Below are positions 18,440 through 49,325 of a DNA stretch of 64,000 bases, one piece after another. Positions within the stretch are counted from its first letter, which is position 1. Every line of letters begins with the position of its first letter. The position numbers and the translations under genes are program-made. Source of the stretch: Hemileia vastatrix (taxonomy: Eukaryota; Basidiomycota; Pucciniomycetes; Pucciniales; Zaghouaniaceae); contig JASXTE010000015.1 in assembly GCA_030280995.1 (NCBI GenBank), forward strand, positions 682,001-746,000. Reading direction: 5' to 3'. The notes under the pieces are model-generated. The model saw nothing but the letters and a program-made list of their open reading frames with translations, was not told where the DNA came from and made no database searches.

Positions 18440-18551
18440 TTTTTTTAGAGTGAGGGAGTGCCAGCAGGGCTACTAGACTTACCTGGTAAAATAATTAATT
18501 ATTTTACTGAGGTGAAGCCACACCTTTTTTAAAAATACTTATTAATTAATT
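18440..18551 (+). repeat. Putative polypurine tract and start of the family C 3' LTR
   Basis: After the pol end, AGAGTGAGGGAG is followed by TGCCAGCAGGGC, the usual layout of a polypurine tract and an LTR start. Only about 100 nt remain before Harbinger element 1 interrupts it. Continuation after 27451 is plausible but not proven. Confidence 0.4.
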
Positions 18552-18680
18552 AGGGGGTATCAATGTTCAGGGATCCGCAATTAGGGATCAGGAATTTTTT
18601 TTTCCGGGATCAGACATTATTAATTGCGGAAGATTCTTATCCACTAGCCCCGGGGCTAGTGGATAAGGAATCCATGATAA
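18552..18680. repeat. Left terminal repeat and subterminal hairpin of Harbinger element 1
   Basis: The terminal repeat (18552-18585) is followed at about 18633-18671 by a near-perfect palindrome with CCACTAGCCCC in each arm. Element 2 has a different subterminal palindrome (about 38422-38450) but shares the CACTAGCCCC motif just after it. Confidence 0.65.
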
Positions 18681-18931
18681 TGCATTATCCCACCTCTTAT
18701 ACCCCAATTTCCATTCCTAATTCCTGATCCCAAACTCATCTCATCCATGATGGATTTTCAAGAAAGTCACATGACTCATAATTGCTGATGTCATCCTTAA
18801 GTCTTTCCTCACTCTATGCTACTTAATTTTGGTGGCAAACACTTAAGTTTTTTTTCTATCTACACACCCCAACTGCACATTTGGCGGTGAATTCCCACTT
18901 CCCTCATCACATAATCCTTCCACCGGCAACA

Positions 18932-20194
18932 ATGAAACACCTCTCTACTAGGAAGCTACTTCACTCAACAATGAATGCTATTACTTTTCTTTTAGTGCTT
19001 TACTATAGATCTGACTCTGATTTGGAAGATGCTTTAGCTTATATGTGTTTTCTTTCCAAAAAGCGTTACATCATCACCAGGGGGCCAAATCTTTATCATG
19101 ATCCCCGATATGATCTGGCCTCTATTCTCATCATTCCTCATTTAAACTTCACCCAACTTTTTAGAACTTCTCCCAATTCTTTCTTCAAACTTTATCAACT
19201 CATCTCTGATCATCCTATCTTTCATAACAATTCCCATAACAAACAGCATAATCCTGCCATCCAACTTGCTGCTGCACTATGTCTCTTTGGCTCAAATGGA
19301 AACGGTGCTGCTGTAAGACGTTTGGATAATCTCTTTAACATAGGATATGGTACCGTGATATTATACACCAAGCGCTGTATGATTGCTATCCTTTCCCTCA
19401 AGTTTCAAACACTTGCTTAGCCAACTCCAGAACAGCGACTTGAATCCTCTCAAGTAATGCAAGCTGAAGGTTTCCCTGGCTGTGTAGGATTTGTTGATGG
19501 CACAACTATACCTTTGAGTCAAAATCCTGCTCGTGATGGCAACCATTATTTTGATTGCAAAAAAAGGTTTCTTCAAAATCTTCTCCGATTTCTCATCCTT
19601 CATAAAATAACTTTTTATCTTCTTTCTAGATACTCTATTGCCGTTCAACTTGTATGCAATGTCAATTAAAAATTTATTGCTTTTCATAGTGGCTGCCCTG
19701 GCTCATGTCATGACTCTTCCGTCTTCCAAAGAATGAGGATTTCTCAAACCCCTGACTCATACTTTGACAAATCTCAGTACCTCCTTACAGAATCAGCATA
19801 TGCAAGTGGAAAGTGCATTATACCTGCTTTCCGTGGTGCAAGTTTAGAAAGTGACCCCAAAACTGCCTTTAATTATCACCTTGCCCAATCAAGAGTACAA
19901 ATTGAACATGCTATTGGTATTTTAAAGGGACAATTTTCTAGTCTTCGGGAGCTCAGAATCCAATTTCAAAAAAAATTGGAGATCAAAACTGAAAATCATT
20001 GGATCATGACTTTCATTATACTCCACAATATTATAGCTGATTTAAAGGATGAGTGGAATGATCTTTATGAAGAAGAGGATCCTGAGCCAGCACCGGCTCT
20101 TTCATCCCTTGAATCACAAAACATTCATTCAACTGGCATACACTCTATCATTATGCCTATTACTCTCCAACATTTCTCTTCACCATCCTTTTAA
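18932..20194 (+). pseudogene. Harbinger (DDE_Tnp_4-type) transposase, element 1
   Basis: Homologous throughout to the transposase at 38662-39921. Catalytic motifs: FVDGTTI (first Asp), PGSCHDS (second Asp), QIEHAIGILKG (Glu). A 63-nt intron (19567-19629) splits the region after the first Asp at the same place as in element 2. Two in-frame stops disable it: TAG at 19418-19420, where element 2 has TGG, and TAA at 19667-19669, where element 2 has AAA. The ATG at 18932 fits the start of the relative; an upstream TTG frame is ignored. Confidence 0.85.
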
Positions 20195-20639
20195 ATTATT
20201 TTTTTTACTCTCCAAATGTCCTCTTTGTGTACTTCATTCACTTGGTTTGGTATTTTGGTTTGTTACATATTCATTTTTTTTTTTGGAATTTACAGTGAAG
20301 ATCTTTTTTTTGGATGGCTCGTTGGTTTTCTTTTACCAGCTCAACATGAAATCACATATTTTGTCAGTGATTTTGTTTTTCTTTCATCACTCATATCCTT
20401 TTCATCCTCTCCTCAAACATCACTCAAATATTTTTGTTACTATTATTTTCTCAACTCATCTCACCAGGTAAGTCTTTTTTTTTCTTTTTTCTTGTTTTTT
20501 ATTTGCTAATCATGAATTTTTTATTTTTTATTTTTTTTGTTTTTTGTTTTTTGTTTTTTTGTTTTTTTTTGTTTTTTTTTTGTTTTTTTTTGTAAGTACT
20601 TTTTTTTATCTTTAAGGTTAGACTAACTTTTATTTATTT

Positions 20640-22985
20640 TCTCTTTTTTCTCTTTTTTTTTGTTTTTTTTCTCTCCTTCACCCTCTTTAGCTCCCTCATT
20701 TCACCCCTTTTCCTCTCTCTTTACCTGCCTCAAGTCATTCTTTCTCCACTCTCATTACCTTCCTCAACAGCCCCTTATTTCACCCTCCTTGCCTGTCCCA
20801 AATCCCCCCTTTCCCCCTTCTTTAGGTGCCTAAAGACCCTCCCTTCCCCTCTCTTTAGGCACCTCATCACTGCCCCTTCCCCTCTCTTTAGGCACCTCAG
20901 CTATCCTTCCTTCTCCTCTCTTTAGCTGCTTCAACCCTCAGAGAGCACATCACTCCGTCCATATTATCATCTCACTAACATTCTTTCGATAGATAGTGCA
21001 TTACAGAAACTTTCCATACGCATCATAGGTATCACAAAATGGTATGGGACTTTTTTTGTGTGTATAAGAAGGCCACCAACTCTAGAAGTTGTGTCTCATC
21101 ATCTCACAGATTGAAGCTTTTATATTAACATATCTTTCAATATCTTTAAATTTTAATACCCTTTCATCAAATTCAATATGCAGAACTTCATCATACTTTG
21201 TGCCTTAATCTTTAATACTGCAGTATTTACCCTGGCTGCTCCAGGAGTATTTGATCAATCATCCTTGCAAAGAAGAAGCATACTTACTTTTGGCAACGGA
21301 AATAAAGTTTCCATGACCAGTACAATTAGCTGTCGAATATCTTTAAATTTTAATACCCTTTCATCAACTTCAATATGCAGAGGCTTCATCAACTACATCA
21401 ACAATATCCTGCGGCAAGGGCCCTTTTTCAGAATCAGCACAATTCAATTCAGTCTGTTTTATAGACAAAACACCAATAATGATTCCATCCTTTGGTCCGA
21501 GCTGCGAGTGGTGTTGTAGCCAACAAAGACCAACTGATGGTAAACTGATATCTGGATGATTTTTTAATTTGTCCTCCAGTTGGGAAAATGCTTCAAAGTA
21601 AAGCGGTCTAAAATAATGCTTTTTGTACTAAGAAGAATTAATCCATGCGTTTGATAGGGCTGTTCTGGCCAAAATTGACTTGGAACCCCAGATTCTCACT
21701 TAACAATTTCCTGAATTTACTTGAAGAATCAAATGGACTCCCACATCCAACACTGTCTTGCGGAGTTTTAACTTTTCCAGAGAAGAACCCACCAGCTAAA
21801 AAATGCACACAAGAATTCATAACTCATCAGCTTATTATGGAAGGATTTGTTTATAGAAAAAATAAATTTACCAATCGGATTATATACTACTACTCAGAGG
21901 CCTAATGCACGACAGCAAGGAAACAACTACTTCAAAGATATTTAGCAAAGCATTTGGAAAAAAAATAAGACAGGACAAGAGTTTATATAAATGGGTCTAA
22001 TATACTGACTTCTGGCTCGGCTTCTCTAGTTATAGCGTTATACATTCCTTGATTTTACCCTGGCTGCTCCAGGAGAATTTGATTGATCATCCTTGCAAAG
22101 AAGAAGCATACTTACTTTTGGCAATGGAAATAAAGTTTCCATGACCAGTACAATTAGCCGTCGAATATCTTTAAATTTTAATACCCTTTCATCAACTTCA
22201 ATATGCAGAAATTCATCGTACTTTGTGCCTTAATCTTTAATACTGCAGTATTTACCCTGGCTTCTCCAGAAGCATTTGATCTATCATCCTTGCAAAGAAG
22301 AAGCATACTTACTTTTGGTGATGGAAATAAAGTTTCCATGGCCAGTACAATTAGCCGTCGAATATATTTAGATTTTAATACCCTTTCATAAACTTCAATA
22401 TGCAGAACTTCATTGTACTTTGTGCCTTAATCTTTAATACTGCAGTATTTACCCTGGCTGCTCCTGGAGCATTTGATTGATCATCCTTGCAAAGAAGAAG
22501 CATACTTACTTTTGGCGATGGAAATAAAGTTTCCATGGCCAGTACAATTAGCTGTTGAAGTGATGATGGCGAGAATCCAGATCCTATGAGTCAAAAGCTC
22601 GGCCGTTGATTTGGTAACGAGGGGAGTTATACTACAAGTACTGACCCAGAGAGTGGAAAGCTTGGCCGTCAAAGTGATCATACCAAGAATTCAGATCCTA
22701 AGGAGGAGGCACTAGAAATGGTTTAAGGGGAGTGTAAAAGGGGAATTGGAACTAAATGGGGGGGTTGAAGCGGCTAAAGAGGGGGGAAAAGAGGGGGGTT
22801 TTGGACATTTAAAGAGGGGTAAAAGGGGGAGTTTGGGAGGGTTTTGTAGCAATTATGGAGGGGGATTCAGGGGGATTTTGAGACAGGCAAGAAGGGGATT
22901 TGAGGATGATTTTGAGGCAAGGAGGGAGGGAATTTAGAGGTGATTTCAGAGAAAGAAAGGGCAGGAAAGGGGACTGTAATAGGAG
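20640..22985. repeat. Large imperfect inverted repeat (pyrimidine arm / purine arm), element 1
   Basis: The left arm (about 20640-20945) is C/T-rich with CTCTCTTTAGGCACCTCA repeats. The right arm (about 22735-22985) is G/A-rich. They are complementary in detail: CTTGCCTGTC in the left arm faces GACAGGCAAG in the right. The 1.8-kb loop holds the secreted-protein fragments. Element 2 has an equivalent structure at 40380-41180. Confidence 0.7.
21143..22726 (+). pseudogene. Tandem fragments of a small secreted, possibly kexin-processed protein gene
   Basis: A unit of about 200 bp is repeated: one complete start at 21178, a partial copy at about 22050-22166, and further copies starting at 22203 and 22400. 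Each start encodes a clear signal peptide (MQNFIILCALIFNTAVFTLA) followed by LQRR, a dibasic kexin-type site, and SILTFG. The last copy continues through two KLGR motifs to a stop at 22724-22726 but has three in-frame TGA codons, at least two of which sit where an Arg codon would fit a dibasic site. The first copy is open for 113 aa but runs into the start of the next unit. No known family was recognised. Probably a captured host gene that was duplicated and then decayed. Confidence 0.6.
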
Positions 22986-23461
22986 TTAAAGAGGGGCTAC
23001 ATATTTTTTTAAAAACATACTAAAAAGTAACTTTTTTTTTTTTTTTTGGCAGATTTTTAGAAAAAAAAAGCTATTACATTCTGTTAAGGTCTTTCCCTGT
23101 AAATTAAAAAACAAAAAAGGTTTAGATATTAATTTTTAATTTTTCTTACAAATAATTTTACTGAATTTTTTTTTGTAATTTTATTTGTTCTGATTTTTCT
23201 TTTACAGATTTTTTTTTATTATTTTGACAGGATATTCTGTGAAGGGTTTTTATAACCAAACTTCAGGTTTTCTTTTGTAATTTGTTTTAAAAATAATTTT
23301 AACTGAAATTTTCTAAATTTTTTTTTGTTTTAATTTTTTTTTATTTTTTTAAAAGGATATTGCTTTAAATTTTATTTTAAAAGATATTATTACGTGAGTT
23401 TTTTTTTAAAATTATGTGTTGAATTTTTTTTTGACATTTAAATTTTTTTCAGATAAAATAA

Positions 23462-24760
23462 ATGTCTTCCTCTTCAGATTCACCCCTTACTTCTCTATCA
23501 TCTTCATATTTATCCTCTTTATCATCTTCATCTTTATCATCTCTATCATCTTCTTCAAAATCAACTTCAATACAATCATCTTCTAAATCATCAAAAAACC
23601 TTAAAGATAATCAGTCTCATCAGAAGAAAAGATATCTGAAAAAAAAATTCATCATCTAAATCATCAAAAAAATTTAAAGATAATCAATCTCATCAGAAGA
23701 AAAGATATCTAAAAAAAAAATTCTCTGTGAAAGTTATTTTCGTCATATCCCAAACATTTTTTTTCATAAAACTAAAGTAGATAAAAAAAATCAATATCCA
23801 AAAAAAATTACCAGAAGATATCAAATATCTAACCAAATTTGGAGATGATTGAGTTGTTGCAGTTATCAGTAATTCTTATAAGGCTCAATTGATTTTGGAA
23901 GTTCATTCATTTGATGGTGTAAAAGATGAATCTTTTAATCAACTATTGGATCTTATCATAACTCTTTATCAAATAGCTTTGGTTCGATTACCTATAAGGA
24001 AAACAAATTTGTTGGGTGGTATCATGATTGGATTTGGTTGGAGAACAGGTTTTGTTAAAGGATATTCTCTTGGTATGTCTAATAATTTTTTTTCCATTCT
24101 TAATATCATTTCACTTATTTCATTTATATAGGCATATATTTTTTGGTCAAGAATATCACCAAAGCTCAAAAAGATGAAGATTTTTGCTCATGGGACACTC
24201 TACCTTCCTTTAACTCTTTTCTTGCTTTTTGACTCAAAAAACTCTGTAATAAAGCATTTGAAAAAAATCATGAACTTGCAACCAAAGTTGGAATACCGAA
24301 TTGGTGTGACTCTGAATGGGAAGATATCAGCCACAAATATCTTTTATTTTCTAATGTTATTATCACTCATTCTGGATTTCACAATAGGATTCATATCAAT
24401 AGGAATGACACCAATTTTCTAACTTTTGGTATATTCTCATATATCAATCCAATAACAGGCCAACAAATACCATCTCCAGCTAAAATCAAAGGACATGGTT
24501 TTTATTTTCCAGACCACCGGTGCATCATTGATTTTGGTTTGGGAAACGGTATCATTGAAACTATTTGGAATTCTTCTAAGGATAATTATCAAACGACCAA
24601 AGCTCCTCCTGGTTTGGAATCTTGTAAAGATTTAACACATTTTTGTTGCTCATTTAAAATCAGTCATAAGTTGATTCAAAGAATCAACAAAGTAAAGAAA
24701 GAAGGTAAAGTTAATCGATTTAAAAAAACTTTATCTAGATGCAAAAAGTATGGGGATTAG
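23462..24760 (+). pseudogene. Tet-like 2OG-Fe(II) dioxygenase, element 1, inactivated
   Basis: Colinear with the intact-looking gene at 41398, including the Ser-rich N-terminus, the LLGGIMIGFGWRTGF block, the intron (gtatgt...atag, about 24072-24132) and the C-terminal GHGFYFPD and GLGNGIIETIWNSS blocks. Several frameshifts break the frame between 23650 and 24540. In the catalytic HxD motif the Asp is Asn (HIN), and the distal His is Tyr (DNYQTTKAP); element 2 has HTD and DNHQTTKAP. Two of three iron ligands are therefore lost, so the protein would be inactive even if the frame were continuous. Confidence 0.75.
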
Positions 24761-24835
24761 AGTTGTCTTCGAAAATTTTATATTTTTTCATAAATTTTAA
24801 ATAAATATTTTTTATATATGAATTTGCTCAAGTAA

Positions 24836-24975
24836 TGTGATGAGCCAACGACCTTTGGTTGTATAACAGGTAATCATGATAACATTTGTTTGTTTCATGG
24901 GGTTCCTCTAGCCTATACCTGTGGAAAGTCCCAAACCTAGTTTCTAGACTTGATCTGCATTTTGGCTTGAGGAAT
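24836..24975. other. Conserved non-coding block downstream of the dioxygenase, element 1
   Basis: About 140 bp that match 42654-42795 in element 2 far better than the surrounding intergenic sequence, including GGTAATCATGATAAC and CTGTGGAAAGTCCCAAAC without gaps. Neither strand keeps an ORF in both copies. It could be a structured RNA, a 3' UTR signal or a transposase-binding site; nothing decides between these. Confidence 0.65.
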
Positions 24976-25049
24976 TTTCATTACTATAAACTAGGGAAAT
25001 TGATATATATTAGATATTTATTTAAAAATTTATGTAATTATATTAAATT

Positions 25050-25460
25050 TAGATGACTTCCACCCCTTACTTCAATAAAATGCAGGGGGGGGGTATTGCC
25101 AAATTTTCAAATCTGACATGTGAAATTGATGACTTAGAAAAATTTTGGTGATACCCACCCCTTGCTTCAATAAAATGCAGGGGATAGTACTGCCAATTTT
25201 TTAAAACAGATTTTTTTGACTTGTAAATATTTTGGTGATACCCGTCCCTTACTTCAATAAAATCCATGGGGGGTTTTGCCAAAATTTCTTTTAAGACTTG
25301 TGAAATTATTGACATGTAAGAATTTTGGGGATACAAGTAAAATGCAGGGGGTAGTAAAGCCAAAGTTTCATATAAGACTTTCAATATTCATGACATGAAA
25401 GAATTTTGGTGATACCCACCCCTTACTTCAAAAAAATCCAGGGATGCGGGATCATCGAAT
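25050..25460. repeat. Tandem repeat of about 85-105 bp, element 1
   Basis: Five imperfect units, each with ACTTCAATAAAATGCAGGGG followed by a TTGCCAA stretch. Element 2 has two units of the same repeat at 42880-43020. Confidence 0.75.
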
Positions 25461-25622
25461 TTTCAAAGGAGACATGAAAAAGTTTCTTTAAAAAAAGAAT
25501 ATTTAACATTAAAATACAAAAATTCTAGTAATTATTGATAGAGTAATGAAATACAGGAAATTATTGTAAATTTTATGTACAAATAAATATGAACAGTTGA
25601 AGTGTGAGAGAAATAAAACAAA

Positions 25623-27080
25623 CTAGTCATCCAAAAATTTCTTTAAACGTTCAATTTCCTTAACAGATTTATTAGCTTTAACACATTCTATCAAGAAATC
25701 TTTCTTTTTGGAATTTTCTTCATGATCAAACTTATAATTCATCTGCTCCAATAGGTTTTGATGTTTGAGTGTTTTCTCCTCTTTTTTTAATTTTTCAATA
25801 CTTAGAGTTAACTCAAACTTCTTCTCCTCCAAATCTTGGGCCCAACCATCCTTCTGTAAAGAGATCTCGTACTTCCTCTCCTCCAAATCTTGGGCCTGAT
25901 CATCCTTCCGTAAAGATAGCTCGTACTTCCTCTCCTCCAAATCTTGGGCCCGATCATCCTTCCGTAAAGAGAGCTCGTACTTCCTCTCTTCCAAATCATG
26001 TAGCCTATCATCCCTCCTTAAAGAGAGCTCATATTTCCTCTTTTTAAAGCTTAGAGTCTCTTTAGCAATTTCTACTTGTTCTAAAGTGATATTAAAAATT
26101 AATATAAAGTGGAAGAAAAGTAGAGTAAAGTAATAAGAGGTATGGTATCACTTACCAGCATCATGTTTCTCTAAAAATTGTTCCATAGACAAAAAAGGGG
26201 TTTGTGATGAAGTATCACTTTTTTGTCTTCTTTGTGAGTGGAAATTTAGAGTACTTGAAGCCTTACGCTTCTTGTTCAAGGTCATATTTTCCTCCTCATC
26301 ATTGTCACTACCTTCAGACTCAGTTGATTGAGGATCCTGGGTTTGTTCATCAGCCTTTTAAGAAATAAGAAAAAGATAAGTAAATAAAAAATAGAAATGA
26401 TAAGATAAAAGAAAAAAGAAACAGACCTTATTTATATTTGGTTGGGTTAAATCACCTATAGGATCTACAGAAAAGCTATCTAGATATTTCTCATTAAAAT
26501 GAGGGGAGGCTTGAGTGGAGGTAGAGGATGGGAAAAGATTTACTTCAAAATCATTTTTGGAGATAGGATCTTCTCCATCCAACATGTTTACAGGATTAAC
26601 ATCGGCTCGCTCTCCAAAAATTGCATCCATCTCTTTAAATTAAGGACATAAAGAATCAAGTTTATTGTCTATGGATTTGATACCCTTAGTTATATCAATG
26701 TTGGTAACCCCAAAACCAGTGGAAGATGAAAGAGCCTTTGCCTTCTTGTATTTGGCTTGGTAATGCTTGAAGTGTCCAGACATCAGTTTAGGAAAAAGAT
26801 CAATCCTTCCCTTGGTCTTATTCCATAATTCATTTTCCATTAAAAGATAGCTATTAAAGTTTGATTCTGGGGGCCGTCCTACTTTAGTTGAATACTCAGT
26901 ACCAAAACAAGAATCATAATTAGATTTGGTTTTCTCCCAGTTGATAAGAATGAGATGATCATCTTTTTTTAATTGAACAGTCTTAGATTTCTTGGCTGAG
27001 TGGGGGAAAGAGGGAGTAGTGGGATGTGAAGAACAACTTGGTGATGGCTGCCTTTGAGAAGATCTAGGATGACGAGGCAT
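25623..27080 (-). pseudogene. SANT/Myb-like Harbinger accessory protein, element 1
   Basis: Harbinger elements typically encode a Myb/SANT-like partner that brings the transposase to DNA. Here the start is MPRHPRSSQ (27080), then a basic region and a SANT-like domain (QLKKDDHLILINWEKTK...). Introns separate further exons (26638-26427, about 26351-26155, and 26084-25623). One TAA (26640-26642) interrupts the frame where element 2 reads through. The C-terminus is a charged coiled coil with four near-identical 20-residue repeats (LEERKYELSLRKDD..AQD), encoded by a 60-bp minisatellite at 25810-26040. The gene points towards the dioxygenase gene. Confidence 0.7.
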
Positions 27081-27409
27081 GTTAAAATATAAATGAAGAT
27101 GAAAAAGAGCAGAAACAAGCAGATGAGATGGTGAGGGGTTCTGAGTGGATAGAATGGACAAGATGGGACTAGAAGGTGAGTGTGAAGCAAGGTAGAAGCC
27201 ATATCCAGAGAGTAGTCCAAGATGTGGTTATGGCAGAAAGTAGGTCAAGATGTGGTTATGACAGAAAGTTGTCCAAGATGTGGTTATGAAAAATTGAGTA
27301 AAAAAATGTCGGACAAGAGGTGAACATTGACACGTAAAGTGTCTAATAACCCAATTTTTAGCAAAAATAATTTTGGAAGATAATTGGGGTATGCAGATTA
27401 ATTTCTGCA

Positions 27410-27448
27410 ATTAATTTAATTGCGGATCGGTCAACATTGATACCCCCT
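27410..27448. repeat. Right terminal repeat of Harbinger element 1
   Basis: Complement of the left end: AATTGCGGATCGGTCAACATTGATACCCCCT, aligned to the left repeat with a few mismatches in the middle. ATT follows at 27449. Confidence 0.85.
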
Positions 27449-27451
27449 ATT

Positions 27452-33881: not shown

Positions 33882-33979
33882 CGGTAAACCTGTTCAGTAT
33901 ATATATTTTACCAAAATTATGAAGGCAGGATATCCTATTTCAAATTCTGTAAAGTATTCATACCTGAACAGGTTTACCG
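33882..33979. mobile_element. Short inverted-repeat element (MITE-like)
   Basis: A 16-nt perfect terminal inverted repeat, CGGTAAACCTGTTCAG at 33882-33897 and its complement at 33964-33979, encloses 66 bp of AT-rich DNA. It abuts the truncation point of Gypsy C2. No target duplication could be verified because C2 does not resume. Confidence 0.55.
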
Positions 33980-34011
33980 ACATGTCTGGAGATGCTCTTA
34001 TGAATTGACCA

Positions 34012-34045
<34 letters not shown>

Positions 34046-34120
34046 ACAGGTCATTTGAGTATTTAATTTGAGGTCAACCCAAATGTTTGAAAAATGATGA
34101 GATCTTGTTGCCCGGCACTG
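33980..34120. repeat. Poly(A) tract and possible Tc1-type terminus
   Basis: A run of about 26 A follows at 34015-34042. On the minus strand 34120-34043 begins CAGTGCCGGGCAACAAGATC and is bordered by TA, which resembles the end of a Tc1/mariner element. No transposase is present, so this is only a suggestion. Confidence 0.3.
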
Positions 34121-34711
34121 TATGTAATACATACACCTTACAAATGCACATTTATCATTTTACATGTTTATCATGATTTTTCCATTATTTTTATCATTAT
34201 TTTTATAATTATCATCTTCACTATTCAATTTGTTATCTCATCATTCTTACCTTTCAAAAAATATAACAAAATATTAATTCCAAATCAAACTCACACCTCA
34301 CCTCAACTGAATCTCCTCTCTTTCACTTGAACATATACACACACCCACACACTCTCTCTCATTCACTTTTAGATTATAAATGCATCATCATTAAGTATCA
34401 ATCGCTAATATGTTTTTTTTCTCCCTTATCTATGATTGTAAGTAATTCAAGGTGCTCATAGTACTTGTTCCTGTGCAAATTAACAAAAAAAAATTGTCTG
34501 CTGTTTGTCGGAAAAACTTAAAGATATAAATGAAATGAGTAAAAAAAAGATCGGATAGATAATAAAAACAATTCGCTAAATATACTTATAAATATACTTA
34601 ATCAACATCATCTAAATAAGAGCGTAGAACTGGTGCCCATTTAATAAACCACGCATAAATATAGCATCAGACTAAGCTTGTCATTTTTTAGCTGCGTTCT
34701 TCAATACCCTG
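34121..34711. other. Intergenic region 3' of the host gene
   Basis: AT-rich, with a short CA/CT-rich tract near 34330. No gene or repeat family recognised. Confidence 0.4.
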
Positions 34712-36303
34712 TCAGTAACTGATCACATCAAGAGCAATCATCGAAACAAGGAGTACTACAGCAGATAAAAGTGGTGGTAATAAACTGATGGATAGAAGTA
34801 TCTGAGCATCGGAAGTGTCATTAGAGCTAAAAACGCTACCATTGATAGGTCTTGTGTGATTTCGACTTCCATTTTTATCTTTGGTATCATTCGTAGAATG
34901 TTGGACAGTTTGATTTTTCGAATAGTTTGACTGATGAACACTGGAAGTGTTAGAGTGAGAATTATGGTTTCTAGAGTAGGGGGCTTGAGTTAGGTTTGTA
35001 TGGTGGGGGATATGCTTAGGTGATGTAGTTGATGAATTTTGATTAGGAGATATATTTATTGAATTTTGTTTATGACAGTCTCGCATTGGTGGAACAGTAT
35101 GGGGATCAGGAGTTTTTGGATCACCTTGATGATATATGTAGTCTTTATAAACTCCTGGGGGTGGTAAAGGATCACTGGAGCATGTATCAAACGAAGGCTC
35201 ATAGTTTCCTGGTATGACCCAGAGACATCCCATTCTGTCATCTGTTTAGAAATCCAACGAAAATAATTTTATTATCAGATGGCGGTCAAAGAGTAAAAAT
35301 TGAAAAGGAAGACACAACTCACAGATATTTGAACACATTTCTTAGAAATGGTTAAAATAGAATAGAGAAAGGGTCAGACAAACATATAAATTATAATATG
35401 AAGATGAGAGAGAACCAACGAAAGGCTTTTGGGTCTTCTGGATTACATAGTCTGATGCAAAATTGGCCATCGCTTACAAAGCTGGTTGAAAAAGGATTAG
35501 CACAATATAAACGAAAGAACGATAGAGAAACAAGGGGCTTACTTTACCCAATGCTTCACTTTGACCTGTGAGCCATTAAAAGCGTTTGTGTAAACTGAAA
35601 CTCCAGGAGGGCTACCCTGTTCAATGTCACTTGACCAACTATGCAAAAAAACAAAGAAGAAAATTCAATGAACAAGAAACGTGAATTAAGTAGAAAAAAA
35701 AGAAAAAAAATCATACGCGAATCCGACGCCGGGGTCGCCTTTTTGTATGCCAAGATGAGGACCATTGACGATACCAGTGATTTGAATGTAACGCTATTAA
35801 TAGAGGACAAACGCGCATATTGATTTTGGAGTTGAAATTGAAAGACATTGAAAGTGATGTTAACACATGAATATGGATATCGAGATGAGTATATAAACCG
35901 AATGATTTATTAATTAAACTCACAGATGTCTTGACAAAATGGGCACCCAACAGTGTCCCATGAGTCATTTGATGAGAACCTGGAGCAGACAAAGTGCAGT
36001 AAGGAATCGCCTGAGATTCCACGGAAGCAAGATTTGAATTGGGGACAGGAGAGCCGAAGATACAAAAGTCATCGAGGGAATTCACATGACTATCAAAAAC
36101 AAAAAGGAGTGTAAACTGAGTGAAGACGTGAGAAGAGGAATAAGAGAATGAAAAGCGGACAGATTTTTGAGATGATGATGGGACGGTAGACTGTTATTTG
36201 AAAGATTGTCAACAGGAGGATTGGCAGGAGCAGCAAGAGATGAAGGAGAGACGGCAAGAAAGAAAAGAGTGACAGGATGGATAAAAGAGGGATTGAAAAG
36301 CAT
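34712..36303 (-). CDS. Secreted glycoprotein, macrophage-activating-glycoprotein-like, probably GPI-anchored
   Basis: Best candidate for a true host gene. It starts at 36303 with a signal peptide (MLFNPSFIHPVTLFFLAVSP). Downstream exons: 36089-35924, 35793-35717, 35638-35543, 35481-35420, an 18-nt exon 35340-35323, and 35241-34712; all joins are in frame. The first intron's donor is unclear. Family motifs appear only after splicing: NSLDDFCIFGSP, GAHFVKTSRYIQITG, VNGPHLGIQKGD, VKHWVNFVSDGQFCIRLC, CSNIYDRMGCLWVIPGNYE. These match a widespread basidiomycete secreted family often labelled macrophage activating glycoprotein; the label says little about function. The tail is Ser/Thr/Asn-rich with many N-glycosylation sites and ends in a hydrophobic segment, as for a GPI signal, so the protein is probably cell-wall or membrane attached. 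Confidence 0.75.
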
Positions 36304-36529
36304 GGATGAGGTGAGGAAAAGGAAAAGAAAAGAAAACGAAACGAAACGAAAAGGGAGTTTAAGTAAACAAACGAGTGAATGAATGAATGAATATCTGTAA
36401 GACAAGTGGGGCAGATGAAAAGAAAGACAAGAGAGTGTCGCAAGGGTTTGTGTGACAAGTTAGATGGGTTGAATGGAAGAAGTTGGAATGTTGGTGACAA
36501 AGAAGAGTATTGAGATTGAGATTCCTTAT

Positions 36530-36533
36530 TATA

Positions 36534-36579
<46 letters not shown>

Positions 36580-36662
36580 ATTATTATTATTATTATTATT
36601 GCTGATTATCAATATGATTGCTGATTATTGATGATGATGATGATGATGATGATATTGATATT
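36530..36662. repeat. ATT/GAT trinucleotide microsatellite
   Basis: A run of ATT units followed by GATGATGAT units, interrupted by a short spacer. It lies about 230 bp upstream of the secreted glycoprotein start. Confidence 0.9.
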
Positions 36663-36803
36663 AATATGAAAGTGGTGTGGAACTTCATATTGATATTTCA
36701 TCGCCAACCTTCATCCCCAAAAGTCTCAGGTAATTTAGCCTTGGCGAGGACGATTAACCGAAACAAAGTGTTCCATGACTAACGTTGAATTTCATTTTGT
36801 TCA

Positions 36804-36838
36804 TTTATGTATGTATGTATGTATGTACATACATACAA
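36804..36838. repeat. TATG tetranucleotide microsatellite
   Basis: Several TATG units followed by the complementary CATA units, forming a small inverted repeat. Confidence 0.85.
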
Positions 36839-38421
36839 GATCATCGTTTACATATCTTGTATATCCATCACTTCCACTCTCAAACTCTATCCTTTGCACC
36901 CAGTATTCGATCCATCTCCTTCATTACACCACTTTGAGCTATTCAATCCCCTTAACTCTGCTAGTCCAGAAGACGCATTACTGCAGTTTATTCCTGTTTT
37001 TCATTTATTCATCTCCTCCTAGTTCCTAAACTCTCTAAAACCCTTTTGCCTCAACTTTTGACTTTGAATATCAATCGAACAACAACAACAAAAGAAACTA
37101 AAAACAAACTAAACCACCGATTCTAAGAAAATAATATTGCTTTTCTGAAGGCTATTCCGTTAAAATTGATCTTTACTTAAATTTCATTAGGCAAAAAATG
37201 CCTAATTTCTACTATCATACCATCAACTTTAAAACTACATATTGAGTCCCTTTATATGAACGATAGTACATGCTCTAACCGCCATCTACATGCATCTATT
37301 TTACTTCTCAAAATTAGCTTACATGTATTTTTGTTGTATCGAAATCACATGCTTCTCTTTCTCTTTCTCTTTACTCCTATTAAGCAATTTAAACCTTTTT
37401 AATTTAAATATTTGTGTGTTTATACTTGGTTCTTGAGCCAGTTTTAGTCTCTCTAAATTCTCCCTGATCGTCGATAAGAATATTGAATGCACAAGAAAAC
37501 AACGCTAAAATATGATATAGGGGGTGGGGCGGGAGCAGCATACTATGACTGACCAAAAGAAAAAAAAAACTAAAAGAAATTAAATAAATAAATAAAAACC
37601 ACAATTGGATAGAAAATCATATTTTTATTTTTTATTAAATTACTTCATACTATCTCAACCGACGAGTATCATGACGGAAAAGCAGACAACTAATTACACC
37701 ACAAAAAAAACACCTGGCACCTGCTAATATGTGCCATTCCAACAATCCATTTTTGATTCAAGAATAACTCAATTTGATGCCACGCGAACTGGCATGTTCA
37801 GTATTAAATGCGCAGTCTTCTCAGAAGAGTTACAGCTGCGCTAAAACTGAATCAAATCAAAGATAGGTTTTGGCACCACCTATAAGGTGCCCACATTTTT
37901 TTTCTGCAGTAAAGTTAAGTATGTACAAAATGATTAAGAGCAAACTACTAGAGAGAAGAAATAGGGTACTTGACAAGAGACTTAGAAAATTATTGCGAGA
38001 GAGACAAATTGTTAGAAAATCTATAGGTGTAAATTGAAAAGGAGAAAACATGAGAAATCATAGGGCAAGGAGAAAAAGAAATAAAAATAATAAGGGTCAA
38101 AAACGTAAATCTGAGGCGTTGAGAAGAAAAAGAAAATTGTTTTTGAGAGATAGGAATAGCCAGATTCGCAAGGGCATGGGCAAAAGGAAGATTTGTGACA
38201 GGGTCAAACATGTGCACTAGAACAGACATGTTTAACTTTAAGTATCTGAAGAGAGCCTATACTTATTTTATTCTTTTGTTTCAATGTTTTATGTTTAATT
38301 TTTAGAAATGTTTTTGTGAAAAACACACATAAAAAAAGGCATCCATGCCGCCAAATTCTTTAAAATTGTAATGAGATGATTGCTTTATTAGGCAGTGTCA
38401 GTTCTGGCAAATCCGCACTTA

Positions 38422-38450
38422 TCTAAGTGCAGATTTCCAAAACACACTAG
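38422..38450. repeat. Subterminal palindrome of Harbinger element 2
   Basis: AAATCCGCACTTA and TAAGTGCAGATTT form an inverted repeat with a 2-nt centre, followed by CACTAGCCCC as in element 1. The same palindrome recurs at about 44919-44947, starting the partial second copy. Further ATCCGCACTT/AGTGCTGATTT motifs follow in both places. Confidence 0.7.
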
Positions 38451-38661
38451 CCCCAACACTGGTGGATTTCAAAATGAAATAAGTCACTTATTTCACTCAA
38501 ATCCGCACTTTCTCAACCAAAAGTGCTGATTTCACCATCAAGTCCCATTTCACTGATTTGTCAGCATCATCCCATTTATACGCAGCACTCCGCAGCATAA
38601 CACTTCATAACTCAAAACATCGTACATCACTTACATCTTCATATCATATCATATAAGAGTT

Positions 38662-39921
38662 ATGCCTTCCTCACTTTCAAATCGTGATAAATTACATAAA
38701 GCAATGACTTTCATGGCTCTTGAACTGCTCTTGGACTCTGATTCCGATTCTGATCTAGAAGAAGATTTTGTCGTTTTATCAAAAATGGCCAGGAAACGTT
38801 ACCTTCTTCCCAGAAAGCCTCAAGTACTTCATACCCCCAAGTACACCATCCAAACACTTCTTAACCTATCTACACCCAGTTTTAGACAGCTGTTCAGGAC
38901 TTCTCAGGAATGTTTCCTTAAATTGCTTGAGCTTATTCAGGATCATCCCATATTTCACAATAATTCTCAAAAAGAACAATGACATCCTTCAATTCAATTG
39001 GCCATCACACTATGTCGTTTGGGTTTAAATGGTAATGGAGCCGCTTTGAAACATTTAGAAAATGTCTTTGATTTAGGGTATGGTTCAGTTAACACTTATA
39101 CCAAACGATGTATCACTGCCATCAACTCCTTGGAATCTCAACTTCTCACCTGGCCAACAAAAGAAGAGCGACTTGAATCATCTCAGGTTATGCAAGCAGA
39201 GGGCTTCCCAGGATGTATTGGTTTTGTTGATGGTACTACTATTCCTTTGAGCCAGAAACCTGCTCAAGGTGGAAACAATTACTTTGACCGTAAAAAGAGG
39301 TAGATTTTTTTTAACTCCTTTCATTCTCTTTGAAACTAACACAAAAAAATATATCTTCTTTATAGATATTCAATTAACGTTCAGCTTATATGTGACGTAA
39401 ACAAAAAATTTATATCATTCTTTGCTGGCTATCCTGGCTCATGTCATGACTCCTACGTCTTCCAAAGAATGCAAATTTCAAATGAACCTGAAAAATTCTT
39501 TGATGAAGATCAGTATCTTCTTGCAGATTCTGCTTATGTGAATGGAAAGTATGTACTTCCTGCTTTTTGGGGAGCAGCTTCAGAAGACAGTCAAAATGCC
39601 AAATTCAACAATCATTTGGCAAAGTCAAGAGTCCGTATTGAACATTCTATTGGAATCTTGAAAGGCCGTTTTTCTAGTTTAAGGGAATTAAGAAGTCCTC
39701 TTAGAAATAAATCTGAAATGGAGGCGGTGATCAACTGGATTCTGTGTTGCACTATACTTCATAACCTACTTGCTGACCTCAAAGATCAATGGTTAGAGCT
39801 GTATGAAGATGAACAAGTTGATTCACCTCCGACTATATCCAACACTTCTATTTCTCAATCAAATAGTATAAGGGCGAAAATTCTTCCAATAACACTCCAA
39901 CATTTTTCAACGCAATTTTAA
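38662..39921 (+). pseudogene. Harbinger (DDE_Tnp_4-type) transposase, element 2, one nonsense codon
   Basis: Cuts and pastes the element. Starts MPSSLSNRDKLHKAM; a 66-nt intron (39300-39365) is removed to join DRKKR to YSINVQLICDV. The catalytic triad is visible: FVDGTTI, PGSCHDSY and RIEHSIGILKGRF. A single in-frame TGA (38980-38982) separates the N-terminal 106 residues from the rest; frame and homology continue directly across it. Everything else is intact, so the loss is recent, or the TGA could be a sequence error. Element 1 has a sense codon at this place. Confidence 0.85.
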
Positions 39922-41397
39922 TTTTTTTTTCTTTCTCTTCAAATTATCAATTTGCATGTGTTATTCACTGAGAATGGTAAATTTTTTTGCATATTTTTTT
40001 GGTTTTTGAATTTGCTGTTAAAGTCTTATTTTTTTTTTCTCTCTGTGTTTTCTTTCATCAACTCAACATGAAATTGCATATTTTCAGCAAACGCATATTT
40101 TTTCAGTCACTCTCTTTTTTTTCTTCACTCATATCCGTTTTCTCCTCTCTTCCTACATCACTCAATCAATTTCACTTATATTTCTTTTTTCTCAACTCAT
40201 CTCTCCAGGTAAGTCATTTTTTTTTACTTAATTTTTTGCTAATTTTTTTTTTTTTTGGTTTTTTTTTTTTTTTTTTTTTTTGTAAGTGGTTGTTTTTAAA
40301 TTTATAGGTAAAATTAACCTTTTTTTCTCTCTCTCTCTCTCTCTCTCCCTCTTTTCTCTCATTTATCCTATTCTTTATCCCCCCTTGGCCTGGTCTTTTT
40401 CCCACCTTTACCCTCTCCTTGGAATGGATACATCCCCCTTTTCCCCCCTTTGGCTGCCTTATTCCCCCTCCTTGGCTCACTCTAACCTCCCTTTTCTCCC
40501 TCTTTGGTCTCATCTCTCCCTTTCTCCCCCTTGTTGGTCTCCTCATATCTTCCCCTCATTCCACTCCACCCCCCACCAAATCCCCCAAATCCCCCCTCCA
40601 AATCCCCCAAATCCTCCCTCCAAATCCCCTCCAAACCCGCCTCTAACCCCCCCCTCCAAATCCCCCTCCTATCCCCCTCAAATCCTCCCTCATATCCCTC
40701 CTACCCCCCCTTAAAATTCACTTAACGATTGCAGTGAATCGTTTGTTAACTTAACGATTCGTTAGCGAATCATTAAGTTAATGAACTATTAGCAACAATC
40801 ATTCATTAACTTAACGATTCGTTAGAGAATCGTTAAGTAAGTTGGAGGGGAGGTTAGGGGGGTTTAGAGGGAGGTATTGGGGGGGTTTCAAGGGGGATTT
40901 GGAGGGGGGTTAGGGGGGGTTCGGAGGGGGTTAAAGGAGGTGGATTGAAGGGGGTGTTTGGGGGGGTTGCAGGGGGTTTGGAGGGGGATTTGCAGGGGGG
41001 TTTGGAGGGGGATTTGGAGGGGGGTTTGGAGGGGATTTGGAGGTGGATTTGAAGGGGGGATTTGGGGGATTCGGAGGGGGGATTTGGGGGATTTGGTGGG
41101 GGGTGGAGGGGTGGTTTTACAAGGGTTTTTGGGAGGTGGGAGAGGGATTTGGAGAGGGGAATTTAGGGGAATGGGGAAGTGTTAAAAAAAATTTAACAGT
41201 TTATTGATTTTTTTTTTGTTTTTTGATTTTTTTTTTTAATTTTAGAGAAAAATATTCATCAAGTTCAAGTGAAATAAAAAAAATTCTTATTAGTCTTTTG
41301 AGGATTTTTTATTTTTTAATTTAAATTAAGTGAGTTTTTTTTTAAATGTATAATTTTGGGTTTTTGAAAAGAAACAAATTTTTAAGTAGAAAAATAC
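39922..41397 (+). other. Putative 5' exon and first intron of the dioxygenase gene, element 2
   Basis: The exon-like block at about 40065-40208 ends CCAG|GTAAGT, as in element 1. A possible acceptor (aagtag, ending 41389) lies 8 bp before the ATG at 41398. The inferred intron of about 1.2 kb contains the foldback below. T-runs flank it. Inference from the two-copy comparison. Confidence 0.45.
40380..41180. repeat. C-rich/G-rich inverted repeat with TTAACGATT palindromes at the tip, element 2
   Basis: The left arm (about 40380-40725) is built of CCAAATCCCC-type units; the right arm (about 40845-41165) of GGGGGATTTGG units on the same strand. Between them, 40726-40840 carries repeated TTAACGATTCGTTAG with its own inverted copies. 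The single strands could fold into a long hairpin; the G-rich arm also has many G-runs that could form quadruplexes. Confidence 0.75.
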
Positions 41398-42555
41398 ATG
41401 TCTTTAACTTCAGATTCACCACTTACCTCACTCTCATCTTCTTTAACTTCATTATCATCTTCAAATTCAACTTCTTTCCAATCATCATCTAAAACATTGA
41501 CAAAAAAAGAACAGTATCAAAATAAAAGAAATTTAAAAAAAGAAATTCACTTGGATCAAATATTTGGCCATATTTCAAAAATCAAGTACTATAAAACTAA
41601 AGTTGAAAAAAAAAGAAAATATCCAAAAATGTTACCTGAAAATATACATTATTTAAATGAAGCTGGAGGTGATGAAGTTAAAGCTGTTATTAATAATAGT
41701 TTCAAACCTCAACTTATTTACGAAACCCATTCTTTTAATGGTTTAAAAGATGAATCATTTAATCAACTCTGTGATATCATCATAACACTCTATCAAATGG
41801 CTTTGGTTCGCTTATCTTTAAGGAATAAGTATTTGTTGGGTGGAATAATGATTGGAATTGGATGGAGACCAGGATTTGAAAAAGGTTTTTCTCTTGGTAT
41901 GTTTAAAAACTTTTCTGGATTTTTTAATATCATTTTACTGAATTTAATTCAAATAGGCATATATTCTTTACTCAGATCTTTATCTAAAGCTGAATTAGAT
42001 AATGATTTTCGAAAATGGAATACGTTACCTTCATTTAATTCATTTCTTGCTCTTCGACTTAAAAAACTCTTCAATAAAGCTTTTCAAAAAAATCATGAAG
42101 TTGCTACAAGATTTGGAATACCAAATTGGTGCGACTCTGAATGGGAAGATATTAGTGATGATCTAATGTTTTCAAATGTTATAATCACTCATTCTGGATT
42201 TCATAACCGAATTCACACCGACTCAAATGATACCAATTACCTAACTTATGGAATTTTCACATATATTAATCATATCACTGGACAACCTATTCCATCACCT
42301 GCAAAAATTAAAGGACATGGATTATATTTCCCGGATCATAGTTGTATAATCGATTTTGGATTAGGAAATGGAATCATCGAAACAGTTTGGAATTCTTCTT
42401 ATGATAATCACCAAACCACAAAGGCTCCTCCAGGTTTGGAATCTTGTCAAGACTTCACACATTTTGGTTGCTCTTTCCAGATCAGTGACAAGTTAATCCA
42501 GCAAATAAACAAGTTAAAAAAGAAGAAAAAGGTGATAAATTTAAATATTCTTTAG
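41398..42555 (+). CDS. Tet-like 2OG-Fe(II) dioxygenase, element 2
   Basis: Predicted Fe(II)/2-oxoglutarate dioxygenase of the Tet/JBP-like type, whose known members oxidise 5-methylpyrimidines in DNA. A Ser/Thr-rich, then basic N-terminus precedes LLGGIMIGIGWRPGF. A 60-nt intron (41897-41956) is retained in the open frame; splicing joins FSLG to IYSLL, giving about 365 aa. Catalytic features: HTD (His 42214, Asp 42220) in FHNRIHTDSND, GIFTYINHITG, GHGLYFPD, and the distal His 42409 in DNHQTTKAP. C-terminal to it, HFGCSFQI matches the rust-fungus Tet-like family as I recall it. The frame ends at 42555, but element 1 homology continues in the next frame to 42584, so a 1-nt slip in an A-run trims the tail only. 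The catalytic domain is intact. Substrate is inference. Confidence 0.8.
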   Translation: MSLTSDSPLTSLSSSLTSLSSSNSTSFQSSSKTLTKKEQYQNKRNLKKEIHLDQIFGHISKIKYYKTKVEKKRKYPKMLPENIHYLNEAGGDEVKAVINNSFKPQLIYETHSFNGLKDESFNQLCDIIITLYQMALVRLSLRNKYLLGGIMIGIGWRPGFEKGFSLGMFKNFSGFFNIILLNLIQIGIYSLLRSLSKAELDNDFRKWNTLPSFNSFLALRLKKLFNKAFQKNHEVATRFGIPNWCDSEWEDISDDLMFSNVIITHSGFHNRIHTDSNDTNYLTYGIFTYINHITGQPIPSPAKIKGHGLYFPDHSCIIDFGLGNGIIETVWNSSYDNHQTTKAPPGLESCQDFTHFGCSFQISDKLIQQINKLKKKKKVINLNIL

Positions 42556-42653
42556 GTAGATCTAAAAAGTATAGGGATTCGTAGAGTCACCAAATATTTA
42601 ATATTCTTCCATAAATTTATAATAAATAAATATGATATTTCAATTTATGAAAT

Positions 42654-42795
42654 TAAAGTAATGGGCCAACGACCTTGTGTTGTATAAAAGGTAATCATGA
42701 TAACATTAATTTGTTTCATGGGGTTCCTCTAGCTTATACCTGTGGAAAGTCCCAAACTTTTGTTTCTCGATTTGGTCTGCATTTTGGCTAGAGTA
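42654..42795. other. Conserved non-coding block downstream of the dioxygenase, element 2
   Basis: Counterpart of 24836-24975, conserved nearly base for base in its core while flanking DNA has diverged. It begins about 70 bp after the dioxygenase frame. No shared ORF on either strand. Confidence 0.65.
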
Positions 42796-42879
42796 ATTGT
42801 CATTACTTTAAAAGTAGTACATTTGACATATCTTATTTATATATTAATTAATTTATGTAATTATATTAAATTTTGATGA

Positions 42880-43020
42880 CTTTCACCCTTTACTTTAATA
42901 AAATGCAGGGGAGGGTATTGCCAATTTTTTAAATCTGACATGTGAAATTGATGACTTATAAAAATTTGGTGGTACCCACCCCTTGTTTCAATAAAATGCA
43001 GGGGAGGGTATTGCCAAATT
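42880..43020. repeat. Two units of the element-specific tandem repeat
   Basis: Two copies of a unit with AATAAAATGCAGGGGAGGGTATTGCC, about 94 bp apart; five diverged units occur in element 1. Confidence 0.75.
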
Positions 43021-43294
43021 TTCAAAACAGATATTGAATTTTATTGACTTAGAAGTATTTGGATAAGCAAACTTATTGACATGAAAGTAAAGACAGAAAT
43101 TTTTTATTATATTTTCAAATTTTAAGTATAAGCAAACTTATTGACTTGAATGTAAAGATAGAAAAAATGTATGATATTTTCAAAAATTTGTCAAAAATAA
43201 CGTACTATATTCAAGACCTTTTATAAGTCAGAATATAAGAAAATATTACCAAAAAGAAATCAAACAAAATTAAATTGACTAGAAAAACAATTTA

Positions 43295-44608
43295 TCAATT
43301 GAAAAGGTCAAGTAATTTTTTAATGTCCTCATAAGATTGGCCATTTTTAACAAATTCCATAATGAAATCTTTTTTTTAAAACTCTCTTGTTTTTCCAATT
43401 CACAAGAAGCCATTTCTCTTTGAAATTGACGGTCATTTACTCTTTCCATCTGCTCTGCCTCAAATTTTTTTTCTTCCAAATCTAAGGCCTTCTGATCTTT
43501 CCTTAGCATATTATCAAACTTCATCTTCTCAAAGTCAAGGGCATTATTCGCAATAGTTGATTTTGCTGAGAAAATTAAATTGAAGTAAATAAATAAATGA
43601 GTTAATGATTAAGATATATAGTAAATGAAACTTACTTATATCTTTTTTTTCAAAATAATCCTCAAGGGAGCCAAATGAGCTTGTTGAAGTATTACCATGT
43701 TTTAATAGATGGTTCAAGTTCATTGAAGTTGAGGCTCAAAGCTTTAGTTTGGAGTTTGAACAAGAAGCTTCAGGAAGTTCATCTAAAGCAGCTTCTAAAG
43801 TTGGATTCACATTTCGGGAATTGAGATTATTTAATGGAGATTGAGTTTGAGTAGGAGGAGACTAGAATGAAAGAGAAATTCAGAGAAGAATTGAAGAAAA
43901 AACAAAAAGTAAACATACATTTAAATTTTGGGCCTCTGAGGATTCAGATCTGCTGCGATATAATTGTTCTGCTTGATAGTCGGGATCATCTTCAGCTGAA
44001 CTATGGTTAGAAGGTGGAGGGGATTGATCTCCTTCAAGTAAAGGTGTTTCGGGTAGATTATAGGAAGGTTTGGATCCAGAAGGTATATTCTTAGTAGTAT
44101 TGTGTAGAAACCAAGGGTTTACATCAACTCGGGAGCCAAAAAGATTATCCATTTCCTCATAGAAAGGACACATGACATTGAGCTTTTTGGAAACAGTAGT
44201 AATTCCAATCTCCAAATCATCATTGTCAATACCAAAGCCAGTTTCATTTGCAGCATGATGAGTCTTTTTATATTTTGAATGGTAACTCTTAAATCTCTCC
44301 TTCATTTGTTTAGGATTGATATTGATTCTCCCCCTTGTTTTCTTCCTTACTTCATTGGCCATCAACAAGTAGCCATTAACCTTTGAAGAAGGTGAAAGTC
44401 CAATACGAGTGGACTTTTCACATCCAAAACATGCTTCAAAATTTGATTTTATTTTAAGGAAGTTGATTATGATGAGATAATCATCCTTTTTAAGCTGACC
44501 TGAACCTGCCTTTGATTTTTCAGGTGTAGGGCTTGCTTTAAAAGGAGACTTTTGTGACAAAGCAGATTTTTGAGTTACCTTTTGAGATTTGGAATGTCTG
44601 GAAGGCAT
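43295..44608 (-). pseudogene. SANT/Myb-like Harbinger accessory protein, element 2
   Basis: Starts at ATG 44608 (MPSRHSKSQKV); an upstream TTG frame is not used. A SANT-like region (LKKDDYLIIINFLKIKSNFEACFG) is followed by KTRGRINI and NPKQMKERF, an acidic Pro-rich middle, and a C-terminal charged coiled coil (ALDLEEKKFEAEQMERVND). Introns fall after about 43921 (donor gtatgt) and after about 43636. A TGA in exon 2 (about 43740) and a 1-nt slip in an A-run near 43370 disrupt it; homology to element 1 continues to a stop at 43295. Element 1's four coiled-coil repeats are present here only once. Confidence 0.7.
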
Positions 44609-44917
44609 TATGAAACTGGCACATAACAAGAAAAAAGATTAAAAAATAGAAGAAATAAGTAAAAAAGAATGTAAACATGCCTGGTCAAAATATTGAAAAT
44701 GTCAGGAAGGGGTGTGTGCCGAGGATTGATGGGTAGGTAGCGAGGAAGGTCAGTGTGTCACATGTGACAGGGATGGGGTAAGAAAGGAAGGGATGTTTTG
44801 TGGCCAAAATGTGGTTGTGAAAAAAAATGGGAAAAAAGTGCTGATTTGAGGTCATAACTGACACCCTTTTTTGAAATAAGTGACTTTTTTGCAAAATTTA
44901 AGTGCTGATTTGGTTTG

Positions 44918-49321: not shown

Positions 49322-49325
49322 TTTC

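What the first reader, a model, noticed from the sequence alone, without database searches (positions are those of the whole stretch)
18552..44867. Two diverged Harbinger transposons share a three-gene plan with a Tet-like DNA dioxygenase
Elements 1 (18552-27448) and 2 (38390-44867) differ in terminal repeats and much of their sequence, yet both carry DDE transposase (+), Tet-like 2OG-Fe(II) dioxygenase (+) and SANT/Myb-like gene (-) in the same order. Fungal TET/JBP genes are known to travel with KDZ-type transposons; I know of no described link to PIF/Harbinger. A shared gene order across diverged copies argues that the dioxygenase is part of the element and useful to it, for example by oxidising methylated termini or relieving silencing.
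Basis: partly seen in the sequence, partly recalled or inferred. Interest (0 to 1): 0.9.

Follow-up and report, generated by a model that had tools for sequence, protein, structure and literature searches.

The report
Jumping genes carrying a DNA-demethylation-type enzyme
Two old copies of a rust-type jumping gene each carry a cutting enzyme, a Tet-like enzyme that probably erases silencing marks on DNA, and a possible DNA-binding helper; the arrangement is real, but the kind was described in print in December 2025.

Summary
Both elements carry DDE_Tnp_4 transposase (+), PF20515 Tet-like dioxygenase (+) and a third gene (-) in the same order. Element 1 has inverted ends (33 nt, 91%) flanked by TA, not 3-bp duplications. 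Element 2's stated right end (44867) looks internal; its true end seems lost where it meets a truncated third copy (44918-45331). The claim that no PIF/Harbinger link is described is wrong: Kojima 2025 (PMC12730594) reports TET+ Harbinger families with TA duplications and a third protein in five Puccinia species and Austropuccinia psidii, naming the Puccinia lineage PHISTA. Element 2's dioxygenase keeps its iron ligands; element 1's has lost two of three. Divergence of transposase and dioxygenase fits past purifying selection (dN/dS about 0.12 and 0.13). The third protein's Myb/SANT match is sub-threshold in element 2, absent in element 1. Copies elsewhere in the genome could not be counted. 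Best reading: a TET+ PHISTA-type family in an unidentified rust, the enzyme countering methylation of the element. New member of a known kind.

The parts
18551..18552 (.). TA, probable target duplication, left of element 1
18553..27447 (+). element 1, whole (8.9 kb), degenerate TET+ Harbinger/PHISTA-type transposon
   Evidence: inverted ends, 33 nt at 91% with the TA included, TA flanks, genes
18553..18583 (+). left terminal inverted repeat of element 1
27417..27447 (-). right terminal inverted repeat of element 1
27448..27449 (.). TA, probable target duplication, right of element 1
18932..20194 (+). element 1 transposase, probable intron 19567-19629, D-D-E motifs kept, two premature stops
23463..24760 (+). 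element 1 Tet-like dioxygenase, probable intron 24073-24131; start codon and domain appear in different frames, two stops in the domain, HxD to HxN and distal H to Y: presumably inactive
25623..27080 (-). element 1 third gene (probably several exons, repeat-rich exon 25623-26147), one premature stop in the first exon
20946..22714 (.). 1.8-kb stretch without counterpart in element 2, inside the C-rich/G-rich block, with 197-bp tandem repeats; borders approximate
38389..38390 (.). TA left of element 2 (no matching TA identifiable on the right)
38391..44945 (+). element 2 as far as it can be followed (right limit approximate); true right terminus apparently lost
38662..39921 (+). element 2 transposase, probable intron 39300-39365, D-D-E motifs kept, one premature stop
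41398..42555 (+). element 2 Tet-like dioxygenase, probable in-frame intron 41897-41956, no premature stop, HxD and distal H kept
43300..44608 (-). element 2 third gene (far end approximate), sub-threshold Myb/SANT-like match in its first exon
40494..41171 (.). C-rich/G-rich inverted block between transposase and dioxygenase (also 20681-22995 in element 1)
42668..43025 (+). block after the dioxygenase, 313 of 356 aligned bases identical to 24847-25204 of element 1
44918..45331 (+). left-end fragment of a third copy, 83% to 38409-38852, fused to element 2's right side

Best explanation
The two elements are diverged, now decayed copies of one TET+ PHISTA-type family (Harbinger-related DNA transposon with TA duplications) in a rust fungus. 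The DDE transposase cuts and pastes the element; the third protein, possibly a much-diverged Myb/SANT protein with a repeat-rich tail, most likely binds the ends and helps the transposase; the Tet-like dioxygenase most likely oxidises 5-methylcytosine on the element and so slows silencing and the later C-to-T decay. Shown: gene content and order, ends of element 1, catalytic residues, past purifying selection, grouping of the two dioxygenases. Inferred: all three activities, the benefit to the element, and the rust host (from relatives and composition).
For: Pfam matches to transposase and dioxygenase in both elements. Ends and TA flanks of element 1. D-D-E motifs kept in both (which residues form the triad is recalled). 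Iron ligands HxD..H intact in element 2; over 16 aligned sequences the first H is kept in 16 of 16, D in 14 of 16, distal H in 14 of 16. dN/dS 0.12 transposase, 0.13 dioxygenase. 14 relatives among 367 candidates; seven of the 14 bear an organism name, two Puccinia sorghi, one P. triticina, four Austropuccinia psidii. The two dioxygenases group at 100/100. Kojima 2025 describes the same gene set in rusts. The window is short of CpG (o/e 0.24), as expected where methylated CpG decays.
Against: No activity shown. Element 1's enzyme has lost ligands and element 2's transposase has a premature stop, so neither copy is autonomous. CpG decay also hit these elements (CG retained 9 of 44 against GC 43 of 107, p 0.024; the reverse direction 9 of 36 against 43 of 113, p 0.17). 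Two stretches of the window where no dioxygenase was found keep as much CpG. Membership in PHISTA was not tested by a transposase tree: none of the paper's sequences was at hand. The TA rests on one insertion and could be part of the inverted repeat. dN/dS rests on two sequences with near-saturated synonymous sites; the bootstrap for the transposase ran from 0 to 0.21 because some samples were saturated. TET- Harbingers exist in the same published cluster.
Confidence: 0.75

Rival explanations
1. Canonical PIF/Harbinger or Nuwa element (3-bp duplications, transposase plus Myb/SANT protein) that captured a Tet-like gene independently of PHISTA.
For: Third protein has a weak Myb_DNA-bind_4 match in element 2 (E 0.0005-0.0014) and in one relative, P0001 (E 0.0046); Kojima places PHISTA near or inside Nuwa with weak support.
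Against: Only TA is shared by the flanks of element 1. The Myb match is below Pfam's cut-off wherever it occurs, absent in element 1 and P0002.
Confidence: 0.15
2. The dioxygenase is a cassette with a history of its own, exchanged between elements by recombination, so the shared gene order overstates a stable association.
For: Codons for the same amino acid are identical in 120 of 197 (dioxygenase) against 103 of 216 (transposase), p 0.008; dioxygenase intron 45 of 59 against transposase intron 33 of 63 identical, p 0.008; 3' block 313 of 356 identical. Kojima reports transfers of TET genes between superfamilies and PHISTA members in more than one TET cluster.
Against: Against the third gene the codon difference is not significant (36 of 72, p 0.13). 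Constraint could explain the same. The two dioxygenases group together and sit at the same place. Kojima holds the P6-cluster PHISTA families of five Puccinia species to be orthologous.
Confidence: 0.25
3. Passenger: one chance capture of a host gene, carried along without use to the element.
For: Both copies are decayed; only two copies could be examined.
Against: dN/dS 0.13 (bootstrap 0.08-0.19) over a divergence at which 59% of synonymous sites differ; ligands intact in element 2; published TET+ Harbinger families in six species.
Confidence: 0.06

Closest known systems
TET+ PHISTA (Harbinger-related, TA duplications), Kojima 2025, PMC12730594
   Same: Rust fungi, DDE transposase of the PIF/Harbinger group, Tet-like dioxygenase, a third protein, TA flanks (element 1).
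   Different: Third protein here has a sub-threshold Myb/SANT match in one of two copies; position of these two in the published tree not tested; sequences of the paper not at hand.
Nuwa / canonical PIF-Harbinger (transposase plus Myb/SANT protein, 3-bp duplications)
   Same: Transposase family, a further protein that may be DNA-binding.
   Different: TA rather than 3-bp duplication; extra dioxygenase.
TET+ KDZ transposons (Kyakuja, Dileera, Zisupton)
   Same: DNA transposon carrying a TET/JBP gene in basidiomycetes.
   Different: Another transposase superfamily; 8-bp duplications in the Dileera family Zisupton-1_PGr.
HarbingerS of Phytophthora, with a SET histone methyltransferase (named in PMC12730594, passage)
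   Same: Harbinger element carrying a chromatin-modifying enzyme.
   Different: Other enzyme, other host.

Membership tests
TET+ PHISTA | PIF/Harbinger-type DDE transposase | tested here: met
   DDE_Tnp_4 in both, D-D-E motifs
TET+ PHISTA | TA target duplications | tested here: met
   element 1 only, one insertion; element 2 inconclusive, right end apparently lost
TET+ PHISTA | PU-type TET/JBP dioxygenase inside the element | tested here: met
   PF20515 between the ends of element 1; named relatives are Puccinia and A. psidii; the PU type itself is inferred from these, not tested against the paper's figure
TET+ PHISTA | third protein without Myb/SANT domain | tested here: inconclusive
   below Pfam cut-off in element 2 and P0001, none in element 1 and P0002
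TET+ PHISTA | transposase clusters with PHISTA in a tree | not testable with these tools
Nuwa / canonical Harbinger | 3-bp target duplication | tested here: not met
   element 1: TTA left, TAT right
Nuwa / canonical Harbinger | Myb/SANT second protein | tested here: inconclusive
   AlphaFold model of it pLDDT 36.8, not usable
Active TET/JBP dioxygenase | HxD and distal H iron ligands | tested here: met
   element 2 met; element 1 not met, N and Y
Active TET/JBP dioxygenase | oxidises 5-methylcytosine in DNA | not testable with these tools
   no bench work

The most novel reading that the evidence does not exclude
TET+ elements leave a measurable footprint of protection: they keep more CpG than neighbouring retrotransposons in which no such enzyme was found (o/e 0.30 and 0.32 against 0.02-0.16 in four Gypsy stretches of the same window), while the dioxygenase with a conserved 3' block moves between elements as an exchangeable anti-silencing cassette; and the third protein is a much-diverged Myb/SANT partner, which would make PHISTA a Nuwa offshoot.
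Probability: 0.2. Interest if true: 0.55.

Novelty: new member of a known kind. Interest (0 to 1): 0.3.

Why it matters
A transposon that brings its own DNA-oxidising enzyme would be a direct case of a mobile element fighting the host's methylation. The kind is already described; what this window adds is one more pair of diverged copies, a corrected right end, a broken and an intact enzyme side by side, and a CpG-content comparison that could be run genome-wide as a cheap test of the anti-silencing idea.

Tried and rejected
Scans of viral contigs with one transposase exon and with the element 2 dioxygenase, both close-relative searches, confirmed no relative (1 and 196 pattern matches). The first protein search with the whole unspliced dioxygenase scored none of 3,865 candidates; exon 2 with its element 1 partner found 14. 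Why the first failed is unclear: several of the 14 lie within its length limits. AlphaFold models of the third protein (pLDDT 36.8) and of the dioxygenase (32.3) are unusable, so no fold search was made. Of 12 Rfam matches listed over 18500-45400 none reaches its gathering score; the four best by bits lie in the C-rich/G-rich block. PDB sequence searches gave no match for the dioxygenase, one at E 1.7 for a transposase exon and three at E 0.5 or worse for the third-protein profile.

The third-gene codon comparison was out of frame and is dropped; one search replaces it (76 of 166 residues identical, synonymous difference 0.73). Intron identities used borders up to five bases off; one search replaces them. 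CpG: the significant test (30 element bins against 34 Gypsy bins, p 2e-8) is not on independent data, used stretches whose borders I chose, and left out the Transposase_21 stretch (6 bins, mean 0.46) and the SNF2 stretch (3 bins, mean 0.39). Both keep as much CpG, and no dioxygenase was found in the ORFs scanned there (the window starts there, so one outside cannot be excluded). CpG retention alone therefore does not prove protection. The organism was not identified: low GC (0.36) and CpG depletion resemble what is reported for A. psidii, but the four annotated A. psidii relatives of the dioxygenase are only 35-40% identical. Iyer et al. 2014 is not held and is known to me only by recall and by what Kojima says of it. 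No fungal genome collection was available to search.
Full report
What is there. Stop-to-stop reading frames and Pfam show in both stretches a DDE_Tnp_4 transposase on the plus strand, a PF20515 Tet-like 2OG-Fe(II) oxygenase on the plus strand, and a third gene on the minus strand. The stretches align to each other over 1,396 nt of the transposase side (67.7%) and 1,596 nt of the dioxygenase side (77.8%). Transposase proteins are 223 of 397 identical, dioxygenase domains 203 of 271, third-gene first exons 76 of 166. This is one family in two diverged copies.

Ends. Element 1 has inverted ends of 33 nt at 91%, the TA included. Both sides share TA; three bases do not match (TTA left, TAT right). 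I infer that element 2's terminus was lost when its right-end inverted repeat became joined to the left-end inverted repeat of a third copy. Its target duplication cannot be read. The left ends of the two elements align only modestly (34.4 against a shuffle maximum of 33.0), so a shared layout there is suggestive at most.

State of the genes. Both transposases keep the three D, D, E motifs (which residues these are is recalled); element 1 has two premature stops, element 2 one. Element 2's dioxygenase has no premature stop; a probable 60-nt intron (41897-41956) is in frame, and its removal gives a junction like that of relatives. Over 16 aligned sequences (the two here and all 14 relatives found) the first iron-binding H is kept in 16, the D in 14 (element 1 N, P0012 E), the distal H in 14 (element 1 Y, P0014 D). 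Element 1's enzyme is therefore presumably dead; it also has two stops in the domain and a start codon apparently out of frame with it.

Selection and history. By the Nei-Gojobori count dN/dS is 0.12 for the transposase (393 codons, 4 stop columns left out, bootstrap 0-0.21 because some samples saturate) and 0.13 for the dioxygenase (269 codons, 2 stop columns left out, bootstrap 0.08-0.19). Both proteins were conserved for most of the divergence. Synonymous sites are near saturation (73% and 59% different), so ratios are rough. The dioxygenase is somewhat younger or more constrained at silent sites: identical codons 120 of 197 against 103 of 216 in the transposase (p 0.008), but not significantly different from the third gene (36 of 72, p 0.13); its intron is 45 of 59 identical against 33 of 63 in the transposase (p 0.008). 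A stretch after the dioxygenase is still more alike (313 of 356). With two copies, exchange by recombination and plain constraint cannot be told apart. In a tree of 16 the two dioxygenases group at 100/100 on a long branch (0.95) away from the other 14; 6 of 13 inner branches are weak and the program warns that long branches meet there, so their nearest relative is unsure.

Third protein. In element 2 Myb_DNA-bind_4 is matched at E 0.0005 to 0.0014 depending on the piece, 19.4-20.9 bits against a cut-off of 27; in element 1 none. A search with both copies gave two relatives among 849 candidates: P0001 has the same weak match (E 0.0046), P0002 none. P0002 and element 1 both have a coiled-coil-like later part (by eye). 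In canonical Harbingers the second protein is a Myb/SANT protein that binds the ends and is imported into the nucleus together with the transposase, and such proteins diverge fast (passages of PMC9179366). I think the third protein is a diverged Myb/SANT protein (about 0.6), but the fold model was unusable and a profile search of solved structures gave no Myb chain.

Comparison with what is known. Kojima 2025 (PMC12730594; I saw the abstract, passages, sections 3.1 and 3.4, and the first of two parts of the discussion) reports 15 TET+ Harbinger families with TA duplications from P. graminis, P. striiformis, P. triticina, P. coronata, P. hordei and A. psidii, names the lineage from Puccinia PHISTA, says they encode a third protein without Myb/SANT domain, and proposes that the enzyme counters methylation and C-to-T mutation. 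A 2026 review says transposon-encoded TET/JBP enzymes are yet to be functionally characterized (PMC13297926, passages). A 2025 survey finds PIF-Harbinger in Pucciniales only among the Pucciniomycotina studied (PMC12210899, passages). My paper searches on the novelty question were made; searches returned no paper, although PMC12730594 is in the library, so an empty listing there says little.

Does it work as proposed? The DNA here is short of CpG (o/e 0.24 over the window), as in a methylated rust genome (passages of PMC8063080, and PMC12774611). Elements 1 and 2 keep more (0.30, 0.32) than four Gypsy stretches (0.02, 0.07, 0.07, 0.16), as expected if the enzyme protected them. But a Transposase_21 stretch (0.45) and an SNF2-gene stretch (0.39), where no dioxygenase was found, keep as much or more, and CpG within the elements is lost faster than the GpC control in one direction (9 of 44 against 43 of 107 retained, p 0.024) and not significantly so in the other (9 of 36 against 43 of 113, p 0.17); transitions at CpG against GpC are 16 of 44 against 24 of 107 (p 0.10) and 13 of 36 against 23 of 113 (p 0.07). 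The sign is right, the control is not clean.

Verdict. A real, well-read finding, of a kind published in December 2025. It adds diverged copies and a few corrections. Interest 0.3.

Noticed in passing
window 40494-41171 and 20681-22995: Between transposase and dioxygenase both elements carry a C-rich run facing a G-rich run that are complementary beyond dinucleotide shuffles (z 9.2 and 7.9); in element 2 the centre is a palindrome (40749-40838). Read-through RNA could form a long hairpin.
   Followed up: partly
window 20946-22714: 1.8 kb without counterpart in element 2, in the middle of that block, with 197-bp repeats and an ORF starting like a secreted protein (signal-peptide-like by eye, about 21178). 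Possibly a captured host sequence.
   Followed up: partly
window 24847-25204 and 42668-43025: Block after the dioxygenase that is 88% identical, more than the gene's silent sites; includes a short shared frame reading GNHDNI..LFHGVPLAYTCGKSQT (by eye) and about 95-bp repeats. No Rfam match at gathering score; RNA fold z -1.3 and -2.0.
   Followed up: partly
window 44918-45331: Left-end fragment of a third copy of the family, directly beside element 2.
   Followed up: yes
window 887-3229 (-) and 6331-8184 (-): Transposase_21 ORF and an SNF2-type helicase gene in two frames; no Tet-like domain among the five ORFs of that end that were scanned.
   Followed up: no
window 9014-11984 and 48715-51687: Inverted pair of retrotransposon stretches at 92%, with further copies of parts near 60-63 kb and strong opposite GC skews.
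   Followed up: no
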